This document shows, in pieces, positions 51,080 to 58,670 of a stretch of 64,000 nt of DNA. The notes beneath the pieces are model-generated. The model saw nothing but the letters and a program-made list of their open reading frames with translations. It had not been told where the DNA came from and did not search any database. This DNA comes from an uncultured Jannaschia sp. (GTDB lineage: Bacteria; Pseudomonadota; Alphaproteobacteria; Rhodobacterales; Rhodobacteraceae): the NCBI GenBank assembly GCA_947494145.1, contig CANLTZ010000007.1, positions 62,001 through 126,000 of the forward strand, in the 5' to 3' direction. Position numbers and translations under genes: made by a program. Positions within the stretch are counted from its first letter, which is position 1. Each line of letters begins with the position of its first letter.

Positions 51080-54049
51080 TTACTCCGTTCCCAGCGCTTC
51101 GTTCACCAGCGCGGCCTGTTGGGATTTGTGTTGGCTGGCCAGGCCCGTGGCGGGCGAGGCGGCGGCGGCGCGACCCGCATAGGCGGGTCTTGTGTGTTTG
51201 GCGCCGATGCGCGTCAGCACCCATTCGATATTGGGTTCCACGAAGGTCCAGGCACCCTGGTTCTTGGGCTCTTCTTGACACCAGACGATTTCGGCCTGCT
51301 TGAAGCGGCTGAGCTCATTGACCATCGACAAAGCGGGGAACGGATAGAATTGTTCGAGCCGCAGGATATACGTGTCGTCGCGACCGGCCTCATCACGCTT
51401 TTCGAGCAGGTCGTAATACACCTTGCCCGCGCAGATGACGACGCGCTTGATCTTGTCGTCGGGCTGCAGGGTCAGGTCCGAATTGCCCTGCTGCGCGTCG
51501 TCCCACAACACACGGTGGAAGCTGCTGCCGGTGGTGAATTCCTCGGCCTTCGAGATCGCCATCTTGTGGCGCAAAAGCGATTTCGGCGTCATCAGGATCA
51601 GCGGTTTTCGGAAGTCGCGGTGCAGCTGTCTGCGCAGGATGTGGAAGTAGTTGGCGGGGGTGGAGCAATTGGCCACGATCCAATTGTCCTGGCCGCACAT
51701 CGTGAGGAACCGTTCCAACCGGGCAGAGGAGTGTTCGGGCCCCTGGCCCTCATAGCCATGCGGCAGCAGGCACACGAGGCCGGACATGCGCAGCCATTTG
51801 CTTTCGCCCGAGGAGATGAACTGGTCGAACATGATCTGGGCGCCATTGGCGAAATCGCCGAACTGCGCTTCCCACATGGTCAGGGCGTTGGGCTCGGCCA
51901 GCGAATAGCCATACTCAAAACCCAGCACAGCGTATTCCGACAAGGCGCTATCGATTACTTCATAATGGGCCTGACCTTCCCGCACGTGGTTGAGCGGGTA
52001 GTAGCGTTCCTCGGTGTCCTGATTGATCAGCCCAGAATGGCGCTGGCTGAAGGTGCCGCGAGTGCTGTCCTGCCCGGCCAGGCGGACCTTATAGCCTTCG
52101 GTCAGCAGTGACCCGAAGGCCAGGGCCTCGGCGGTGGCCCAGTCGAAACCTTCGCCAGACTCGAACATCTTGGTCTTGGTTTCCAAAAGCCGTCCCACCG
52201 TCTTGTGCAGCGGGAAATCGGCGGGAGGCGTGGTCAGAGCGCGCCCGACATCGGCCAGTGTCTCGGGCGCGATGGCCGTCTCACCCCGGATATACTCGTC
52301 GGTATTGCGGCGATCCAAATGCGACCAACGCCCATCCAGCCAATCCGCCTTGTTGGGCTTGTAATCCTTCCCGGCCTCGAATTCCTGGGCCAGTTGGTCT
52401 TGAAAGGCGGCCTTCATATCTTCGATTTCGCCCTCAGGGATCAGCCCGTCCTTCACCAGCCGCTCGGTATAAAGCGACAGGGTCGTCTTATGACCCTTGA
52501 TGCGCTTGTACATGATCGGGTTGGTGAACATGGGCTCATCGCCCTCGTTATGGCCGAAGCGGCGATAACAGAAGATGTCGATGACCACGTCCTTGCCGAA
52601 CTTCTGGCGGTATTCCGTCGCGACGCGCGCGGCGTGGACGACGGCTTCGGGGTCGTCGCCGTTCACGTGGAAGATCGGGGCTTCCACCACCAGCGCGTTG
52701 TCGGTCGGATAGGGGCTGGAGCGTGAAAAGTGCGGCGCCGTGGTGAACCCGATCTGATTGTTCACCACGATATGGATCGTGCCGCCGGTGCGGTGACCGC
52801 GCACGCCTGAAAGCGCGAAGCATTCCGCCACCACGCCCTGGCCTGCAAAGGCCGCGTCACCGTGCAGCAGGATGCCGCAAACCTGTTGGCGTTCTGCATC
52901 GCCCAACTGGTCTTGCTTGGCGCGGACCTTGCCCAACACCACCGGGTTCACCGCTTCCAGGTGCGACGGGTTCGCGGTCAGTGAGATATGGACAGTGTTG
53001 CCGTCAAATTCCCGGTCCGAGGATGCGCCCAAATGGTATTTCACATCGCCCGAGCCATCGACCTCCTCCGGTTTGAAGCTGCCGCCCTGGAATTCGTTGA
53101 AGATGGCGCGATACGGCTTGCCCATCACATTGGCCAGCACACTCAGCCGCCCGCGGTGCGGCATGCCGATGACGATTTCCTGCAAGCCCAACTGTCCGCC
53201 GCGCTTGATGATCTGCTCCATCGCGGGGATGAGCGCTTCGCCCCCATCCAGGCCAAAGCGTTTGGTGCCCATATACTTCACATGCAGATACTTCTCGAAG
53301 CCCTCGGCCTCGACCAGCTTGTTGAGGATGGCGCGGCGGCCATTCTGCGTGAAGTGGATTTCCTTGCCGAACCCCTCGATCCGTTCCTTTAGCCAAGCGG
53401 ATTGCTCGGGGTCGGAAATGTGCATGTATTGCAGGGCGAACGTGCCACAATACGTTCGTTTCAAGATGTCGACGATCTGGCCCAGCGTCGCGACTTCCAG
53501 CCCCAGGACGTTGTCGATGAAGATGGGCCGGTTCATGTCCGCGGCGGTGAAGCCGTAAGATGTGGGCTCCAACTCCGGATGGGGTTCGGGGTTACGCATG
53601 CCTAGCGGGTCAAGTTCGGCCGCCAGGTGCCCCCGGATGCGGTGCGCCCGGATCAGCATGAGCGCGCGGATGGAATCGAGCACGGCACGGCGGATCTGCT
53701 CATCTGTGACGGCGATGCCCTTTTCGGCGGCTTTGGCGGCAATCTTCTGACCCGCGGCTTTGGCTTCCTTGGGGTCGGCGGCAGGCAGGGGCCATTCGCC
53801 CGTCAGCGCGGCTGTCAGGTCGTCGGCGGGCACAGGCGGCCAATCATTCCGCGCCCAGGACGGGCCTTCTGCTTCGGCACGGGCTGCCCCCGGCTCATCG
53901 GCAAGGGCCTCGAAGAATTGCCGCCAGCTATCGTCGACCGCCGACGGGTCGTTGGCATAGCGGGCATACATCTGTTCGAGGTATTCCGCATTGTGCCCCT
54001 GCATGAAGCTGGTGGAGCGGAACGCGTCGTTGGGGGATTGGTCGGTCAT
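51080..54049 (-). CDS. sucA: 2-oxoglutarate dehydrogenase E1 component
   Basis: A 989-residue thiamine-diphosphate enzyme. It has the E1o N-terminal motif ([18 protein letters not shown]), [14 protein letters not shown], the ThDP region [15 protein letters not shown] and [10 protein letters not shown], and a transketolase-like C-terminal part ending [17 protein letters not shown]. It decarboxylates 2-oxoglutarate and loads succinyl onto SucB. ATG 54049 overlaps the stop of the upstream unknown gene by 4 bases. The linker region at about residues 55-75 is Ala-rich and longer than in E. coli SucA. Confidence 0.97.
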
Positions 54050-54669
54050 TGATCTTCTTCCGGGTTCAGGACGGATACGGTCTCGACGATGGAAACGGTC
54101 GCGGTATCGGTCGTCAGGTCCGACAGCAGGGCAGGCTCAAGCGCGATGGCCATCAAGCGGCGCAGGGGTTCCTCGGCAAGGACCTCGAAGGTGGATGGGC
54201 CGAAGCCCTCGTCGGTGCCGGTGGTCGTCTCACCCTCGGGGGTCGCGATGCGGCAGATGACCTCGACGATGCCGAGCCTGCCTTGCTGTGGCAGCCCCCA
54301 GTTGAAGGTCATCGCGGCGTCGCCGCGGGTCAGGACACGCTGCTTGGCAAGGTCCGTGTCGACCCGCCGCGCGAGCCCGGGCACGGTCCGGCGTTGCAGG
54401 TCCATGATCTCGGGCAGGGTCGATCCGCCCCGGTCGGTGGAGGCATAGAAGATCGTCCGCGCAAGCGCGATCCGCTCGGCCGCGTCCGCGGGGACGGGGG
54501 CGCCGGGTTCGAGGGGCATCCAGCCCTCGGCCTCAAGCGAGGCCAACAGCACGTCGAAGTCGCGCTCGTCGGCCAAGCAGGCTTGCGGCGCGGTCTGCGC
54601 TGCGGCGGGTGCGCCAAATGCCGCAAGCATCACTGCCAGCAGCCCTGCTTTAGATCCCGTGGTTCTCAT
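54046..54669 (-). CDS. Exported protein translationally coupled to sucA
   Basis: A 207-residue protein with a signal peptide (MRTTGSKAGLLAVMLAAFGA, cleaved after AAAQ). The mature part has two Cys (in PQACLADERDF and EVICRIATPEG), so a disulfide is possible, and ends in acidic NPEEDQ. ATG 54669 is preferred because GGAGGA lies 7 bases upstream. Its stop overlaps the sucA start (ATGA). Not recognised as a family. The periplasmic location is odd for a gene coupled to a cytoplasmic TCA enzyme. Confidence 0.65.
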   Translation of the reverse strand: MRTTGSKAGLLAVMLAAFGAPAAAQTAPQACLADERDFDVLLASLEAEGWMPLEPGAPVPADAAERIALARTIFYASTDRGGSTLPEIMDLQRRTVPGLARRVDTDLAKQRVLTRGDAAMTFNWGLPQQGRLGIVEVICRIATPEGETTTGTDEGFGPSTFEVLAEEPLRRLMAIALEPALLSDLTTDTATVSIVETVSVLNPEEDQ

Positions 54670-54709
54670 CCTGCTGTCCTCCTTGGTAATGACCAACTCG
54701 GTCGACTGA

Positions 54710-54760
54710 GATTGCTTCCTTCACCGCCTCGCCCAAAGTCGCCAAACCGTCGGCAACGCC
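54710..54760 (-). pseudogene. Degenerate duplicate of the sucD 3' end
   Basis: Read on the minus strand the segment encodes [16 protein letters not shown], against [16 protein letters not shown] at the C-terminus of SucD (55424-55474). About 39 of 51 bases match, and over 17 codons 14 residues agree. There is no start codon and the sucD stop is not kept. The fragment lies 714 bases from the true sucD end, on the far side of the membrane-protein gene. Confidence 0.75.
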
Positions 54761-54876
54761 GCGTCTGCCCATTGAGGTCAGTGAGATAAGAGCGACCAGC
54801 TCTCACAACCCGGCTTCGAACACTATTGGAATGCCTTCGACGTGATCGTGTTCTGAGGTCGCGCATCACCATCCCA

Positions 54877-55413
54877 TCATGCCTTAGCGCCGTTGGAGTG
54901 GGATTTCATCAGGCGGAGTCCTGCGACATGCGCGATCATCATCGCGGTGATGAATGGGAGTATTGCGATAGCCAGCCAATAAGCGAAGAACCCGATCAGC
55001 AAGAGCAGCCCTGCTGCCGCGAAAGCGAAAAGGCCGACAGCGCTTCCCAAGAGCGATGCGGATAGAGCGGCAAACAGCGCGCCGATCAGGATGTAAACTC
55101 CGTAGGCCAAGAGCAGGGACCCTATGAGCGCGGGCGCGTAAGGCGCGAAGGCCAGAGACGCATCCTCTCTGGCGTCAAGGAGGCGTCGCTGAATTGCCAT
55201 GGCGAGCGGTAGACTGGAAAGGAAGAGTATTCCGATGCAAAGGAGCAGTTGCTCGAAGAATTCGAAGCCGAGAGCGCAAACCGCGAAGATGCCGGCAGCC
55301 TGAAGCGCAAGGCCGAGGGGGGCGAGGCGCCAGAAGTCACGTCTTCCGAGCCGAGCCTCTCCCTGGGCAACCCGACCCTCCCCTTCCCTGTCAGTCTGAT
55401 TTGGCCACGCCAT
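54877..55413 (-). CDS. Four-helix membrane protein inserted after sucD
   Basis: A 178-residue protein with a charged N-terminal 30 residues (DREGEGRVAQGEARLGRRDF) and about four membrane helices: LAPLGLALQAAGIFAVCALG, LLLCIGILFLSSLPLAM, LIGSLLLAYGVYILIGALF and AAAGLLLLIGFFAYWLAIAI. ATG 55413 lies 4 bases after the sucD stop; TTG 55425, overlapping sucD, is an alternative. No family recognised. Because a decayed copy of the sucD end lies beyond this gene, it appears to have been inserted into the operon with a replacement sucD 3' end. Confidence 0.65.
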   Translation of the reverse strand: MAWPNQTDREGEGRVAQGEARLGRRDFWRLAPLGLALQAAGIFAVCALGFEFFEQLLLCIGILFLSSLPLAMAIQRRLLDAREDASLAFAPYAPALIGSLLLAYGVYILIGALFAALSASLLGSAVGLFAFAAAGLLLLIGFFAYWLAIAILPFITAMMIAHVAGLRLMKSHSNGAKA

Positions 55414-55417
55414 CACA

Positions 55418-56299
55418 TCACCCAATCGCTTCCTTCACTGCCTCGCCCAGCGTGGCCGGGCTGTCGGCGACGACGATCCCGGCGGACCGCATGGCCTCGA
55501 TCTTGCTCTCTGCGTCGCCCTTGCCGCCTGCAACGATGGCGCCGGCATGGCCCATGCGGCGGCCCGGAGGGGCGGTGCGTCCGGCGATGAACCCGGCGGT
55601 AGGCTTCCAGCGGCCCTTTTTCTTTTCAGAGGCCAGGAACTCGGCGGCCTCTTCTTCGGCGGTCCCGCCGATTTCACCGATCATGATGATCGACTGGGTT
55701 TCGTCATCGGCCAGGAACATCTCCAGCACGTCGATATGTTCGGTCCCCTTGATCGGGTCGCCCCCGATGCCGACGGCAGTCGATTGGCCCAGCCCCATAT
55801 CTGTGGTCTGCTTGACGGCCTCATAGGTCAGCGTACCCGAGCGGCTGACCACCCCGACCGAGCCGCGCTTGTGGATGTGCCCCGGCATGATCCCGATCTT
55901 GCAGGCATCCGGCGTGATCACGCCGGGGCAATTCGGGCCGATAAGTTGCGTCGCCGAGCCGTCCAGCGCGCGCTTCACCTTCATCATGTCCAGAACCGGA
56001 ATGCCTTCGGTGATGCAGACGACAAGCGGGATCTCGGCGTCGATGGCTTCCAGAATGCTGTCGGCAGCGAAGGGCGGCGGGACATAGATCACGCTGGCAT
56101 CGGCGCCGGTCTTGGCGACGGCCTCATGGCAGCTATCGAAGACCGGCAGGTCCAGATGGGTCATGCCACCTTTGCCCGGTGTGACGCCGCCCACCATCTG
56201 GGTGCCATAGGCGATGGCCTGTTCGCTGTGGAACGTGCCCTGAGAGCCGGTGAGCCCCTGGCAGATGACCTTGGTATCTTTGTCGATGAGGATGGACAT
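55418..56299 (-). CDS. sucD: Succinyl-CoA synthetase subunit alpha
   Basis: A 293-residue CoA-binding subunit: [28 protein letters not shown], the CoA region [13 protein letters not shown], the [13 protein letters not shown] segment and [12 protein letters not shown] with the phosphorylated catalytic His. Works with SucC to make ATP (or GTP) from succinyl-CoA. In many bacteria sucD follows sucC directly; here five small genes separate them. Confidence 0.97.
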
Positions 56300-56322
56300 G
56301 TCGTCTCCGGGTAGTGGTCGAT

Positions 56323-56907
56323 CTAATTGTGCACGATCAGGATGACGGGATGATCGAAGATCACGTCGTCGCCTGTCGCGGGGTCGGTGAAGGTGGTTCG
56401 GGCCAGTGGGAGGGTCACGGCCAGGTTGTCGAAGAAGAAACCCGCGCCGCCATCGCGGTTGGTGCCAGCCCCGATGGGGGACAGAAGGGTATCACTGCCA
56501 TCCACCAACAGGGGCGCCAAGATTTCACCGGCCAAGCGGTTGGCCAGCCGCGTGCCAACGGCGGGAGAGCCCACGGAACAGCCGCTGCCACTGACCACGG
56601 TGCGATTGCCTGCCTCGTCGAAGACGGCCTGGTCGGGGGCTGGTCCGATGCGCAGAAAGGTCAGCGTACCGGGGTTCACGTAGACGATGGCATTGCCCTC
56701 GCGCTCCCGCACAGGGAAGTTGAGCGACCGCGCCGCGCGATCTTGCGACGTGCGCGTCCGGTTGTTGAGGCACACAGCCTCGGTCGCGAAACGCATCCGC
56801 TGGGCGGCGATGTCGGTCGCGCCCCGGCTAAAGCCTGTCTCGGTTGCGGGGACGCAGGCGCCCAAACCGATGGTGGCCGCTAGGGCAGCGATGAACATCC
56901 GGATCAT
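56323..56907 (-). CDS. Putative lipoprotein, suc operon cassette gene 4
   Basis: A 194-residue protein with a lipoprotein signal ([20 protein letters not shown]; lipobox LGAC, Cys18). Mature part: [20 protein letters not shown], a central [19 protein letters not shown] and a C-terminal [15 protein letters not shown]. It would be anchored in a membrane facing the periplasm. The start overlaps the previous gene's stop (ATGA) and the stop lies 23 bases before sucD. No family recognised. Confidence 0.65.
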
Positions 56908-57419
56908 TGCGCGACCTCACGGCGGGTGGCCTCGGGGTTGAGGCGTTCGACGCTCAGGAACGTCTCGGGGCCATCGGCGCCGGGCCGTGTGCCGGTGTGG
57001 ACCACGGCAATACGGCCGGGGTTCAGGAACCGCGCGGCCAGCAGTGTGGTGCCGGGCAGGCGGGCGTTTTCGTGCGAAAATGGTAGAGGAGCGTCCTTTT
57101 CGATGCCCTCTGCCTCCAGAGCGGCAATGGCACGTTGCGCGGCGATGTCCCCCCGGTCACCGTTAAACGCGACGGCGCAACGGCGGTCCGTGTTCGGCGT
57201 TGCCGTAAAGGATGCGGGCGAGGGTGGCACATCGGACACTGGATTGAGGTCGTAAAAGTCGTGCCGTGCCCGGATCGACTCAAAGGCCGACCTCGCCGTT
57301 TCAGCGGTCAAGAAGGGCGAAAAGCAATTCGCCGTGAAAGCCTTTATCGCGGCATCTTCCGCAAGGCAGGGCGTCGCAGCCAGCGCCAAGGTAAAGGGGA
57401 GGTGCGTATACATCGTCAT
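56904..57419 (-). CDS. Exported protein, suc operon cassette gene 3
   Basis: A 171-residue protein with a signal peptide (MTMYTHLPFTLALAATPCLA, cleaved near AED). Two Cys in the mature part (TANCFSPF and RRCAVAFNG) could form a disulfide. Start ATG 57419 overlaps the stop of the preceding lipoprotein gene (ATGA) and its own stop overlaps the next start. Longer readings of this frame run through the upstream gene and are not credible. No family recognised. Confidence 0.65.
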   Translation of the reverse strand: MTMYTHLPFTLALAATPCLAEDAAIKAFTANCFSPFLTAETARSAFESIRARHDFYDLNPVSDVPPSPASFTATPNTDRRCAVAFNGDRGDIAAQRAIAALEAEGIEKDAPLPFSHENARLPGTTLLAARFLNPGRIAVVHTGTRPGADGPETFLSVERLNPEATRREVAQ

Positions 57420-57910
57420 CCCTCCGGCCGGAATTCGAGGCTGTAGCGCTGGGCGTCGCCGCCAACCGGCTCGGGCCCCACCACACGGGTGACGGAGCCA
57501 CGGGCGCGGCCGACCCGTTCCCCCGGCGCGACTGATCGGTATGTGGCGATCTGCGCCAGTGCCGCGTCGACTGTGGCTCCATCGTCGCGTGTCACCACAT
57601 CGAGCGCGCAGATCGGCTCCCCGTCCGCCGCGCGCCCGAGACGAAGGGTTGCCCCTCCGTCCGGCAGGTCGAAGGTGCCCTCGCCTGCAGGGCGAAAGCC
57701 GTTGGCCTGCGCCAGATCCGGCGCCGTCGCGAAACCCGGCAGACTTGCGCCGCAGACCCCATCGAAAAGCGCCACGGCCCGGTCCATCGATAGGCTGACC
57801 ACCGGGCCCCCGGCTTCCGTCACGCACCCAGCCAGCGCCACCATTCCCGCAAGCGGCGGGGCGACGGACCGGCAGAGCCGCGAGGCGCGTGCTTTGGGGG
57901 CTGGGCTCAT
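57416..57910 (-). CDS. Putative lipoprotein, suc operon cassette gene 2
   Basis: A 164-residue protein with a lipoprotein signal (lipobox LAGC around residue 29 after the hydrophobic PPLAGMVALAGC). The mature part includes FDGVCGASLPGF and GEPICALDVVTR, two Cys that may pair. Both ends overlap the neighbouring genes by ATGA. No family recognised. Its length and general plan (signal, two Cys, 140-150 mature residues) resemble gene 3 of the cassette, but no sequence identity is evident by eye. Confidence 0.65.
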   Translation of the reverse strand: MSPAPKARASRLCRSVAPPLAGMVALAGCVTEAGGPVVSLSMDRAVALFDGVCGASLPGFATAPDLAQANGFRPAGEGTFDLPDGGATLRLGRAADGEPICALDVVTRDDGATVDAALAQIATYRSVAPGERVGRARGSVTRVVGPEPVGGDAQRYSLEFRPEG

Positions 57911-58071
57911 GACGCGTCTTGGTCTTCCGGCTGGCTAACGGGCGGGCCGCCAAAGGGGTCAAGGTCAAGCGACCAGCCTTGTTCCGGGGTCGGGCCATCG
58001 ACAGTTCCAGCGTTGTGGAAGTTGCAGGCGGAGAGGGCAGTGAGCATCGCCATCGCCGCCACCATTTTCAT
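57907..58071 (-). CDS. Small lipoprotein, suc operon cassette gene 1
   Basis: A 54-residue lipoprotein: MKMVAAMAMLTALSACNFHN with lipobox LSAC (Cys16), followed by a Pro-, Gly- and Asp-rich tail (PTPEQGWSLDLDPFGGPP). ATG 58071 is chosen because the hydrophobic core then sits at the N-terminus; the longer GTG-initiated frame from 58143 would bury it. The stop overlaps the next gene's start (ATGA). It heads the chain of four coupled exported proteins between sucC and sucD. Confidence 0.6.
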   Translation of the reverse strand: MKMVAAMAMLTALSACNFHNAGTVDGPTPEQGWSLDLDPFGGPPVSQPEDQDAS

Positions 58072-58130
58072 GATAGCGAAACAAGGCTCTATGCGCTCAA
58101 GACTCGCTGCGGCGCGCTCAATCGTCGGAG

Positions 58131-58664
58131 TTAGAGTGGGCATTCTGAGACGTCCATTGTCTGAATTTTCGCTGTGCGTCCGTGTATTTGAGCAAGGCGC
58201 CCGTCTCCGACCACTGAAAGGGTTACGCGCATTTCACCGTTTGGAAATGCAATATCCCAGAAGAAGTCGACCACATCCCTGGTCTCTCGGTCCGGCGTCG
58301 CGCGAGGCAGGTTCCAGATACCTGAGTAGGCTAATTCCAGTGCCGGACCAAAGTCTGAACCTACTTCGTACTGGCTTACCGAAACTGCCCGTTGCCGTCT
58401 TCCGTCGACCACCTCATCGGATACGACCATAAAAACCTCGTTGGAAGCTGATGCATATTCTCTGAGCGTGTAGTCGGGACGATCTTCCCCCCCATTCGTT
58501 TGGCTTAGAGAAAACTGCCGAGCGACGGCTTCGATGTTGGAGAGACACGGGAGATCGGCTCTAGCAGCTTCGAAAATGCGGACCATATCCTTAGCGGATA
58601 TCGGCGACGGATCTGCTGGCGTGCAGGAACACAGAACTGTCAGAAGTGTAAAGCAAAGGCGCAC
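58131..58664 (-). CDS. Putative lipoprotein after sucC
   Basis: A 177-residue protein beginning [20 protein letters not shown], a short hydrophobic lead with two possible lipobox Cys, which suggests a lipoprotein or exported protein. The remainder is mixed alpha/beta-like with further Cys (DLPCLSNIE and VSECPL). GTG 58664 starts 6 bases after the sucC stop. Its DNA, especially 58430-58600, is lower in GC than sucC and the cassette, a hint of separate acquisition. No family recognised. Confidence 0.6.
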
Positions 58665-58670
58665 CTCACC

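What the first reader, a model, noticed from the sequence alone, without database searches (positions are those of the whole stretch)
54710..55474. sucD 3' end is duplicated around an inserted membrane-protein gene
The minus strand at 54710-54760 encodes [16 protein letters not shown], nearly identical to the SucD C-terminus ([16 protein letters not shown], 55424-55474), and about 39 of 51 bases agree. The intact sucD end abuts the unknown four-helix gene at 54877-55413; the decayed copy lies beyond it. The simplest reading is that DNA carrying this gene and a replacement sucD 3' end entered at the end of sucD and left the old end as a relic, as some site-specific elements do. A tandem duplication followed by replacement is the alternative.
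Basis: partly seen in the sequence, partly recalled or inferred. Interest (0 to 1): 0.72.

Follow-up and report, generated by a model that had tools for sequence, protein, structure and literature searches.

The report
Leftover sucD end after gene swap
A scrap of the end of a core metabolic gene (sucD) lies behind a small membrane-protein gene, most likely a scar left when that gene was brought in, together with a new sucD end, at a spot where related bacteria carry many different genes.

Summary
54711-54761 (minus strand) matches the sucD 3' end (55425-55475) at 78% over 51 bases and 14 of 16 residues, far beyond shuffled controls. Of 99 relatives surveyed (19 of the genus, 80 of the family) none shows a second sucD end.

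The two ends differ at 11 of 48 bases yet encode almost the same peptide, which is unlikely for a neutrally decaying self-copy (P 0.0002-0.0006; 0.033 if only 7 relic-specific changes count).

Best reading: DNA carrying a sucD end plus the membrane gene paired with the resident sucD on one side and joined without homology on the other, stranding the old end before the old downstream gene (homology-facilitated illegitimate recombination). No recombinase-like gene or long identical core was seen, so a site-specific element is not supported.

The membrane protein is DUF805-like but below Pfam level. The sucD-sucA gap of this family (51-3484 nt) holds changing genes, DUF805-type in at least 25 of 99 relatives. 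A second truncated leftover lies in the same gap of G009. Polarity and donor remain unproven.

The parts
55418..56299 (-). sucD (succinyl-CoA ligase alpha subunit), intact, 293 aa
   Evidence: ORF; best match 92-97% identical in each of 19 genus relatives
55425..55475 (-). intact sucD 3' end, upper copy of the repeat
   Evidence: the repeat finder D1
54877..55413 (-). membrane-protein gene (178 aa), DUF805-like, starting 4 nt after the sucD stop
   Evidence: No match in 19 of 19 genus relatives; profile of slot DUF805 proteins E 7e-5 against 0.13 for the best of 300 shuffles; no Pfam hit at E up to 1
54762..54876 (-). spacer between the membrane gene and the relic; no convincing homology found
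   Evidence: Only short matches in the 20 genus genomes, the best 20 nt at E 0.002 apart from itself; those I looked at fall in unrelated reading frames
54711..54761 (-). sucD 3'-end relic
   Evidence: 78% over 51 nt; 14 of 16 residues; no second case in 99 relatives
54046..54666 (-). gene for a secreted-looking protein (206 aa), downstream of the relic
   Evidence: Homologues by tblastn in the stretch of 14 of 19 genus relatives; no Pfam hit, NCBIfam only far below cut-off
51080..54049 (-). sucA, right border of the slot
   Evidence: ORF; found behind sucD in 98 of 99 relatives, the contig ending first in the other

Best explanation
The sucD-sucA gap of this family is a gene-turnover slot. 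In this genome a DNA piece carrying a diverged sucD 3' end and a DUF805-like gene behind it entered the slot. It was anchored by homology inside sucD, so sucD stayed functional with the incoming end, and its other end joined without homology inside or just before the resident's last 17 or so sucD codons. The resident end was thus stranded directly ahead of the resident downstream gene and has since drifted. Shown: the repeat, its absence from 99 relatives, the variability of the gap, codon-preserving divergence. Inferred: the one-sided homologous, one-sided illegitimate mechanism; the direction (membrane gene as newcomer); DNA entry by gene transfer agent or transformation.
For: Repeat far above chance and seen only here among 100 intervals. 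11 differences in 48 nt keep 14 of 16 residues, P 0.0002-0.0006 under random substitution. At two codons the relic has forms common in the genus (GCG, 8 of 19; ATC, 18 of 19) where the intact end has GCA (0 of 19) and ATT (1 of 19, G013) (my reading). The membrane gene has no match in 19 of 19 genus relatives, while the gene behind the relic has 85% and 79% homologues in G003 and G019, also between sucD and sucA. 8 of 19 genus relatives show sucD directly followed by a more distant homologue of it. The gap measures 51-3484 nt in 98 relatives, with changing content. Same kind of scar in G009: compared with its sister G013, a glycosyltransferase-like gene stands where the DUF805 gene and most of the next gene are, leaving that gene's last part (28 of 43 residues). 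The genome has an uninterrupted GTA_TIM gene and a ComEC-type gene. The published model for Vibrio cholerae effector loci describes the same geometry (PMC5361080, passages seen).
Against: No donor was found in genome contigs, viral contigs, plasmids or phages. No genome shows the 79-85% homologue of the downstream gene directly behind sucD. No import tract is visible: 250-nt blocks of sucD and sucA have no relative far ahead of the rest, though the block spanning the sucD end is nearest to G013 (0.888, next 0.852). If only the 7 relic-specific changes count, the codon test is weak (P = 0.033). Those 7 changes all lie in the 5' half of the relic, and at one codon (GCA before ATC) the relic has a form that only G006 shares while the intact end has the common one. 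The reverse polarity gives the same layout.
Confidence: 0.6

Rival explanations
1. Reverse polarity: the membrane gene is the older resident, and a piece carrying another lineage's sucD end, the downstream gene and part of sucA came in from the sucA side, joining without homology behind the membrane gene.
For: Same final layout; the membrane gene keeps its close coupling to sucD; intact sucD has no strongly anomalous block; DUF805 genes are common next to sucD.
Against: The membrane gene has no match in 19 of 19 genus relatives, while the downstream gene type is shared with G003 and G019, which the sucD+sucA tree puts in this genome's larger clade (the node joining the two subclades has support of only 0.158). 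sucA has no strongly anomalous block either.
Confidence: 0.2
2. Tandem duplication of the genome's own sucD end, with later gain or loss of neighbours and neutral decay of one copy.
For: A simple event; the repeat is direct and in the same gap.
Against: Substitutions keep 14 of 16 residues (P 0.0002-0.0006 for 11 random changes, 0.033 for 7); at two codons the relic has forms common in the genus that the intact end lacks; the 115-nt spacer beside the relic matches nothing else in the window or loci beyond short chance-level hits.
Confidence: 0.12
3. Insertion of a small site-specific element that restores the sucD end, as integrases do at some gene 3' ends.
For: The target is a gene 3' end; the repeat flanks the insert; the host gene is intact.
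Against: No recombinase-like gene seen in 714 nt (antisense frames were not searched against families); longest identical run between the ends 11 nt (letters); no phage, plasmid or viral-contig relative of the gene; no sucD-end repeat in 99 relatives.
Confidence: 0.05
4. The relic is not a scar but is kept by selection, as part of a 40-codon reading frame or as a leader ahead of the downstream gene.
For: An open frame ATG...TAA runs through the relic (read) and the peptide is well kept.
Against: No ribosome-binding sequence visible to me ahead of that ATG; no Rfam match at gathering level; no relative surveyed has it.
Confidence: 0.03

Closest known systems
Displacement by homology-facilitated illegitimate recombination (model for Vibrio cholerae T6SS effector-immunity arrays; PMC5361080, passages seen)
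   Same: A conserved upstream stretch anchors incoming DNA, the far end joins without homology, and the old 3' end and old downstream gene are pushed behind the new gene.
   Different: There the locus encodes competing effectors; here the anchor is a TCA-cycle gene whose old end is only a 51-nt scrap.
Hotspots without recognisable mobile elements, with recombination at flanking core genes (PMC5635113, passages seen)
   Same: Variable content between two conserved core genes; no mobile-element gene seen in the insert.
   Different: That work looks at hotspots in 80 bacterial species; here the comparison is between species and the spot lies between two genes of one metabolic operon.
DUF805 (PF05656) membrane proteins
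   Same: The product aligns over residues 14-148 with slot DUF805 proteins, including R..R.DFW and P......RRL.D.
   Different: No Pfam hit at E up to 1; 29% identity to its best relative outside this genome.
Integrative elements at gene 3' ends that restore the host gene (recalled; e.g. elements in icd)
   Same: Intact gene end plus old end beyond the insert.
   Different: No recombinase-like gene seen, no long identical core, 714 nt only.

Membership tests
Displacement by homology-facilitated illegitimate recombination | Intact anchor gene at one border, truncated old end at the other | tested here: met
   Intact sucD and a 51-nt relic, 714 nt start to start
Displacement by homology-facilitated illegitimate recombination | The two ends come from diverged lineages, not from a self-copy | tested here: inconclusive
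   Codon-preserving divergence (P 0.0002-0.0006), but P = 0.033 on relic-specific changes only and no donor found
Displacement by homology-facilitated illegitimate recombination | Junction with at most micro-homology at the far side | not testable with these tools
   Needs a donor and a pre-insertion genome
Site-specific integrative element at a gene 3' end | Recombinase gene within the insert | tested here: not met
   The membrane gene is the only same-strand ORF over 82 aa inside the insert and has no recombinase family hit; antisense frames were not tested
Site-specific integrative element at a gene 3' end | Identical core repeated at both ends | tested here: not met
   Longest identical run 11 nt (letters)
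DUF805 (PF05656) | Score above the Pfam gathering cut-off (25.7 bits) | tested here: not met
   0 families at E up to 1
DUF805 (PF05656) | Detectable relation to a profile of DUF805 proteins from the same slot | tested here: met
   E 0.0016 against 0.22 for the best of 20 shuffles; enlarged profile E 7e-5 against 0.13 for the best of 300 shuffles; but hhalign probability only 14.8% over 31 columns

The most novel reading that the evidence does not exclude
The junction between sucD and sucA in this family is an integrase-free gene-exchange slot inside a central metabolic operon. It favours DUF805-type membrane genes, several of which start at or next to the sucD stop, and one-sided recombination in sucD leaves readable scars (this relic; the truncated gene in G009) from which the order of swaps can be reconstructed.
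Probability: 0.4. Interest if true: 0.5.

Novelty: new member of a known kind. Interest (0 to 1): 0.35.

Why it matters
It records one gene gain in an unexpected place, the operon of a core energy pathway, and points to a gap where about a quarter of the relatives surveyed keep a DUF805-type gene. That makes two questions testable: how genes are swapped there without visible mobile-element enzymes, and whether DUF805 proteins have a tie to the 2-oxoglutarate dehydrogenase / succinyl-CoA ligase step.

Tried and rejected
Donor search for the membrane gene: 3 of 393 other family genomes match weakly, none in genome contigs, viral contigs, plasmids or phages at the limits used. The best weak relative (29%, G057, L046) proved to lie between sucD and sucA in that genome.

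The plus strand of the spacer can be read as LSQPGFEHYWNAFDVIVF, which reminded me of an ion channel. The genome's own channel (L136) has only WNLFDFVI in common, and the short spacer matches I looked at lie in unrelated reading frames, so I treat it as chance.

Apparent second sucD ends in L129 and L132 (z 5.6 and 4.6 by DNA) do not encode the sucD peptide, so I count them as chance; by protein score the next best after this genome is 32 against 61. The DNA score leaves out 4 of 100 intervals under 60 nt; the protein score includes them.

Block scan along sucD and sucA for an import tract: no strong outlier. Alignment of the DNA ahead of the downstream gene between this genome and G019 showed no useful similarity; G003 dropped out because my pattern did not catch its start. 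A tblastn with eight homologues of the downstream gene missed the G009 leftover; the pairwise comparison with the sister G013 found it. A scan for second copies of the sucA start found nothing striking (best 30 of 51; no shuffle control was run). Papers: searches (175 papers, 20 listed, none of the 20 with the word DUF805; 2 papers) showed nothing on this slot; only listings were seen. Searches were also seen as listings, apart from the two papers whose passages I read.

Full report
Observation. The minus strand reads sucD (56299-55418), then an ORF starting 4 nt behind the sucD stop (55413-54877), a 115-nt spacer, a 51-nt stretch resembling the sucD end (54761-54711), a gene for a secreted-looking protein (54666-54046), then sucA. 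The repeat finder gives the pair 54711-54761 / 55425-55475 at 78% over 51 nt. Against the last 51 nt before the sucD stop the stretch scores 37 of 51; 100 base shuffles of the interval reach at most 27 and 60 Markov shuffles at most 29. The peptides agree at 14 of 16 residues.

Relatives. The window lies in a 4.9-Mb genome; 20 genomes were returned for its genus when 150 were asked for. The membrane gene has no match in the 39 other genomes of the first search, 19 of them of the genus, and in a draw of 394 family genomes only 3 others match, weakly (29-35% identity). I took the sucD-sucA stretch of 19 genus relatives and of 80 further family genomes from the top of the sucD list (160 of 179 genomes matched there), passing over two (G174, G166) whose sucD lies, or seemed to lie, at a contig end. 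sucA follows sucD in 98 of 99; in the other (L117) the contig ends first. The gap is 51 to 3484 nt, under 300 nt in 30 of those 98, and at least 432 nt in all 19 genus relatives. No relative shows a second sucD end: two stretches with raised DNA scores (L129, L132) do not encode the peptide.

The slot. The content differs between species even within the genus: DUF805-type membrane proteins, glycosyltransferase-like, hydrolase-like and sulfotransferase-like proteins, and small secreted-looking proteins (names other than DUF805 are my reading of the letters, not search results). A motif filter finds DUF805-type proteins in the gap of 25 of 99 relatives. Of eight proteins given to Pfam (seven from slots of relatives, one of them G057 which is outside the 99, and the window's own), five are DUF805 above the cut-off; three, including the window's, have no hit. 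The window's protein matches a profile of 28 slot DUF805 sequences at E 0.0016 against 0.22 for the best of 20 shuffles, but hhalign gives a probability of only 14.8%. With four more slot proteins added (a fifth was already in the profile and entered twice; one, from G057, had been found through the window protein) it scores E 7e-5 against 0.13 for the best of 300 shuffles; of 27 membrane-like ORFs of the window used as controls the only one among the 12 best is, by its position, the gene itself read from stop to stop. I call it DUF805-like, not a DUF805 member.

What the two ends tell. Over 48 nt they differ at 11 positions, 7 of them at third codon positions; 9 codons differ but only 2 residues change. 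If 11 random substitutions had hit one copy, 14 or more of 16 residues would be kept with probability 0.0002 to 0.0006; with 7 substitutions, my count of changes found in no genus relative, the figure is 0.033. At two codons the intact end has GCA and ATT where the relic has GCG and ATC; among the 19 genus relatives GCA occurs in 0, GCG in 8, ATT in 1 (G013), ATC in 18. At another codon the relic's GCA is shared only with G006 while the intact end has the common GCG (my reading). On balance this favours two sucD ends that diverged in different lineages while both worked. The 7 relic-specific changes all lie in its 5' half. The longest identical run is 11 nt, which does not suit a site-specific core. 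The insert region is somewhat poorer in G+C (0.55-0.63 in 150-nt windows between 54700 and 55299) than most of its neighbourhood, though sucD too dips to 0.57.

Direction. The gene behind the relic has homologues at 85% (G003) and 79% (G019) between sucD and sucA, and sucD sits directly ahead of a more distant homologue (34-45%) in 8 of 19 genus relatives: G015, G016, G004, G010, G014, G006, G001, G017. By parsimony the membrane gene and its sucD end are the newcomers and the relic is the old end still in its old place. The reverse is not excluded: no genome shows the 79-85% homologue directly behind sucD, and no block of sucD or sucA stands far out; the block spanning the sucD end is nearest to G013 (0.888, next 0.852), which may be a faint hint of origin or nothing.

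A second scar. In the sucD+sucA tree G009 and G013 are sisters (support 0.963). G013 has sucD, a DUF805 gene, the secreted-protein gene and sucA. G009 shares 30 of 34 nt around the sucD end, then carries a glycosyltransferase-like gene, then only the last part of the secreted-protein gene (28 of 43 residues, E 4e-14; 76% over 198 nt including the start of sucA). This looks like the same one-sided replacement with another breakpoint.

Mechanism. The geometry is that proposed for Vibrio cholerae effector loci, where a conserved stretch anchors incoming DNA and the far end joins without homology, shifting the old 3' end and gene downstream (PMC5361080, passages seen). Hotspots without recognisable mobile elements and with frequent recombination at flanking core genes are known in general (PMC5635113, passages seen). 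A route for DNA entry is conceivable: the genome has an uninterrupted GTA_TIM gene and a ComEC-type gene; that gene transfer agents of this order carry about 4 kb is recalled. A consensus scan found no promoter- or terminator-like site in 53900-56400, in keeping with read-through from sucD, and the closeness of the sucD stop and the new start suggests translational coupling; both are inference.

Verdict. Most likely a real scar of a gene gain next to sucD, by recombination that was homologous on one side and illegitimate on the other. The process is known; this place, a gap within a TCA-cycle operon often holding DUF805 genes, did not come up in the two paper listings searched for it.

Noticed in passing
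51080-56299 and the same gap in 99 relatives: The sucD-sucA gap varies from 51 to 3484 nt with changing content; DUF805-type genes stand there in at least 25 of 99 relatives, which hints at a tie between DUF805 and this operon.
   Followed up: partly
L031 (G009), about 1225-1444 nt after the sucD stop: Truncated 3' end of the secreted-protein gene left behind a glycosyltransferase-like gene; the gene is whole in the sister G013.
   Followed up: yes
56300-58670: About 2.4 kb with several short ORFs, some lipoprotein- or secreted-looking, also separates sucC from sucD, a possible second slot in the operon.
   Followed up: no
L022/L045 (G012 contig 34): G012 carries a second sucD-like gene, 71% identical to the window's, with no sucA match in the stretch fetched.
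   Followed up: no
54800-54853 (+): The spacer can be read as LSQPGFEHYWNAFDVIVF, faintly like a voltage-gated channel segment (recalled); no supporting match.
   Followed up: yes
G011, G017, G019 gaps (L038, L040, L028): Two or more neighbouring genes for small secreted-looking proteins stand in one gap, suggesting local expansion of an undescribed secreted-protein family.
   Followed up: no
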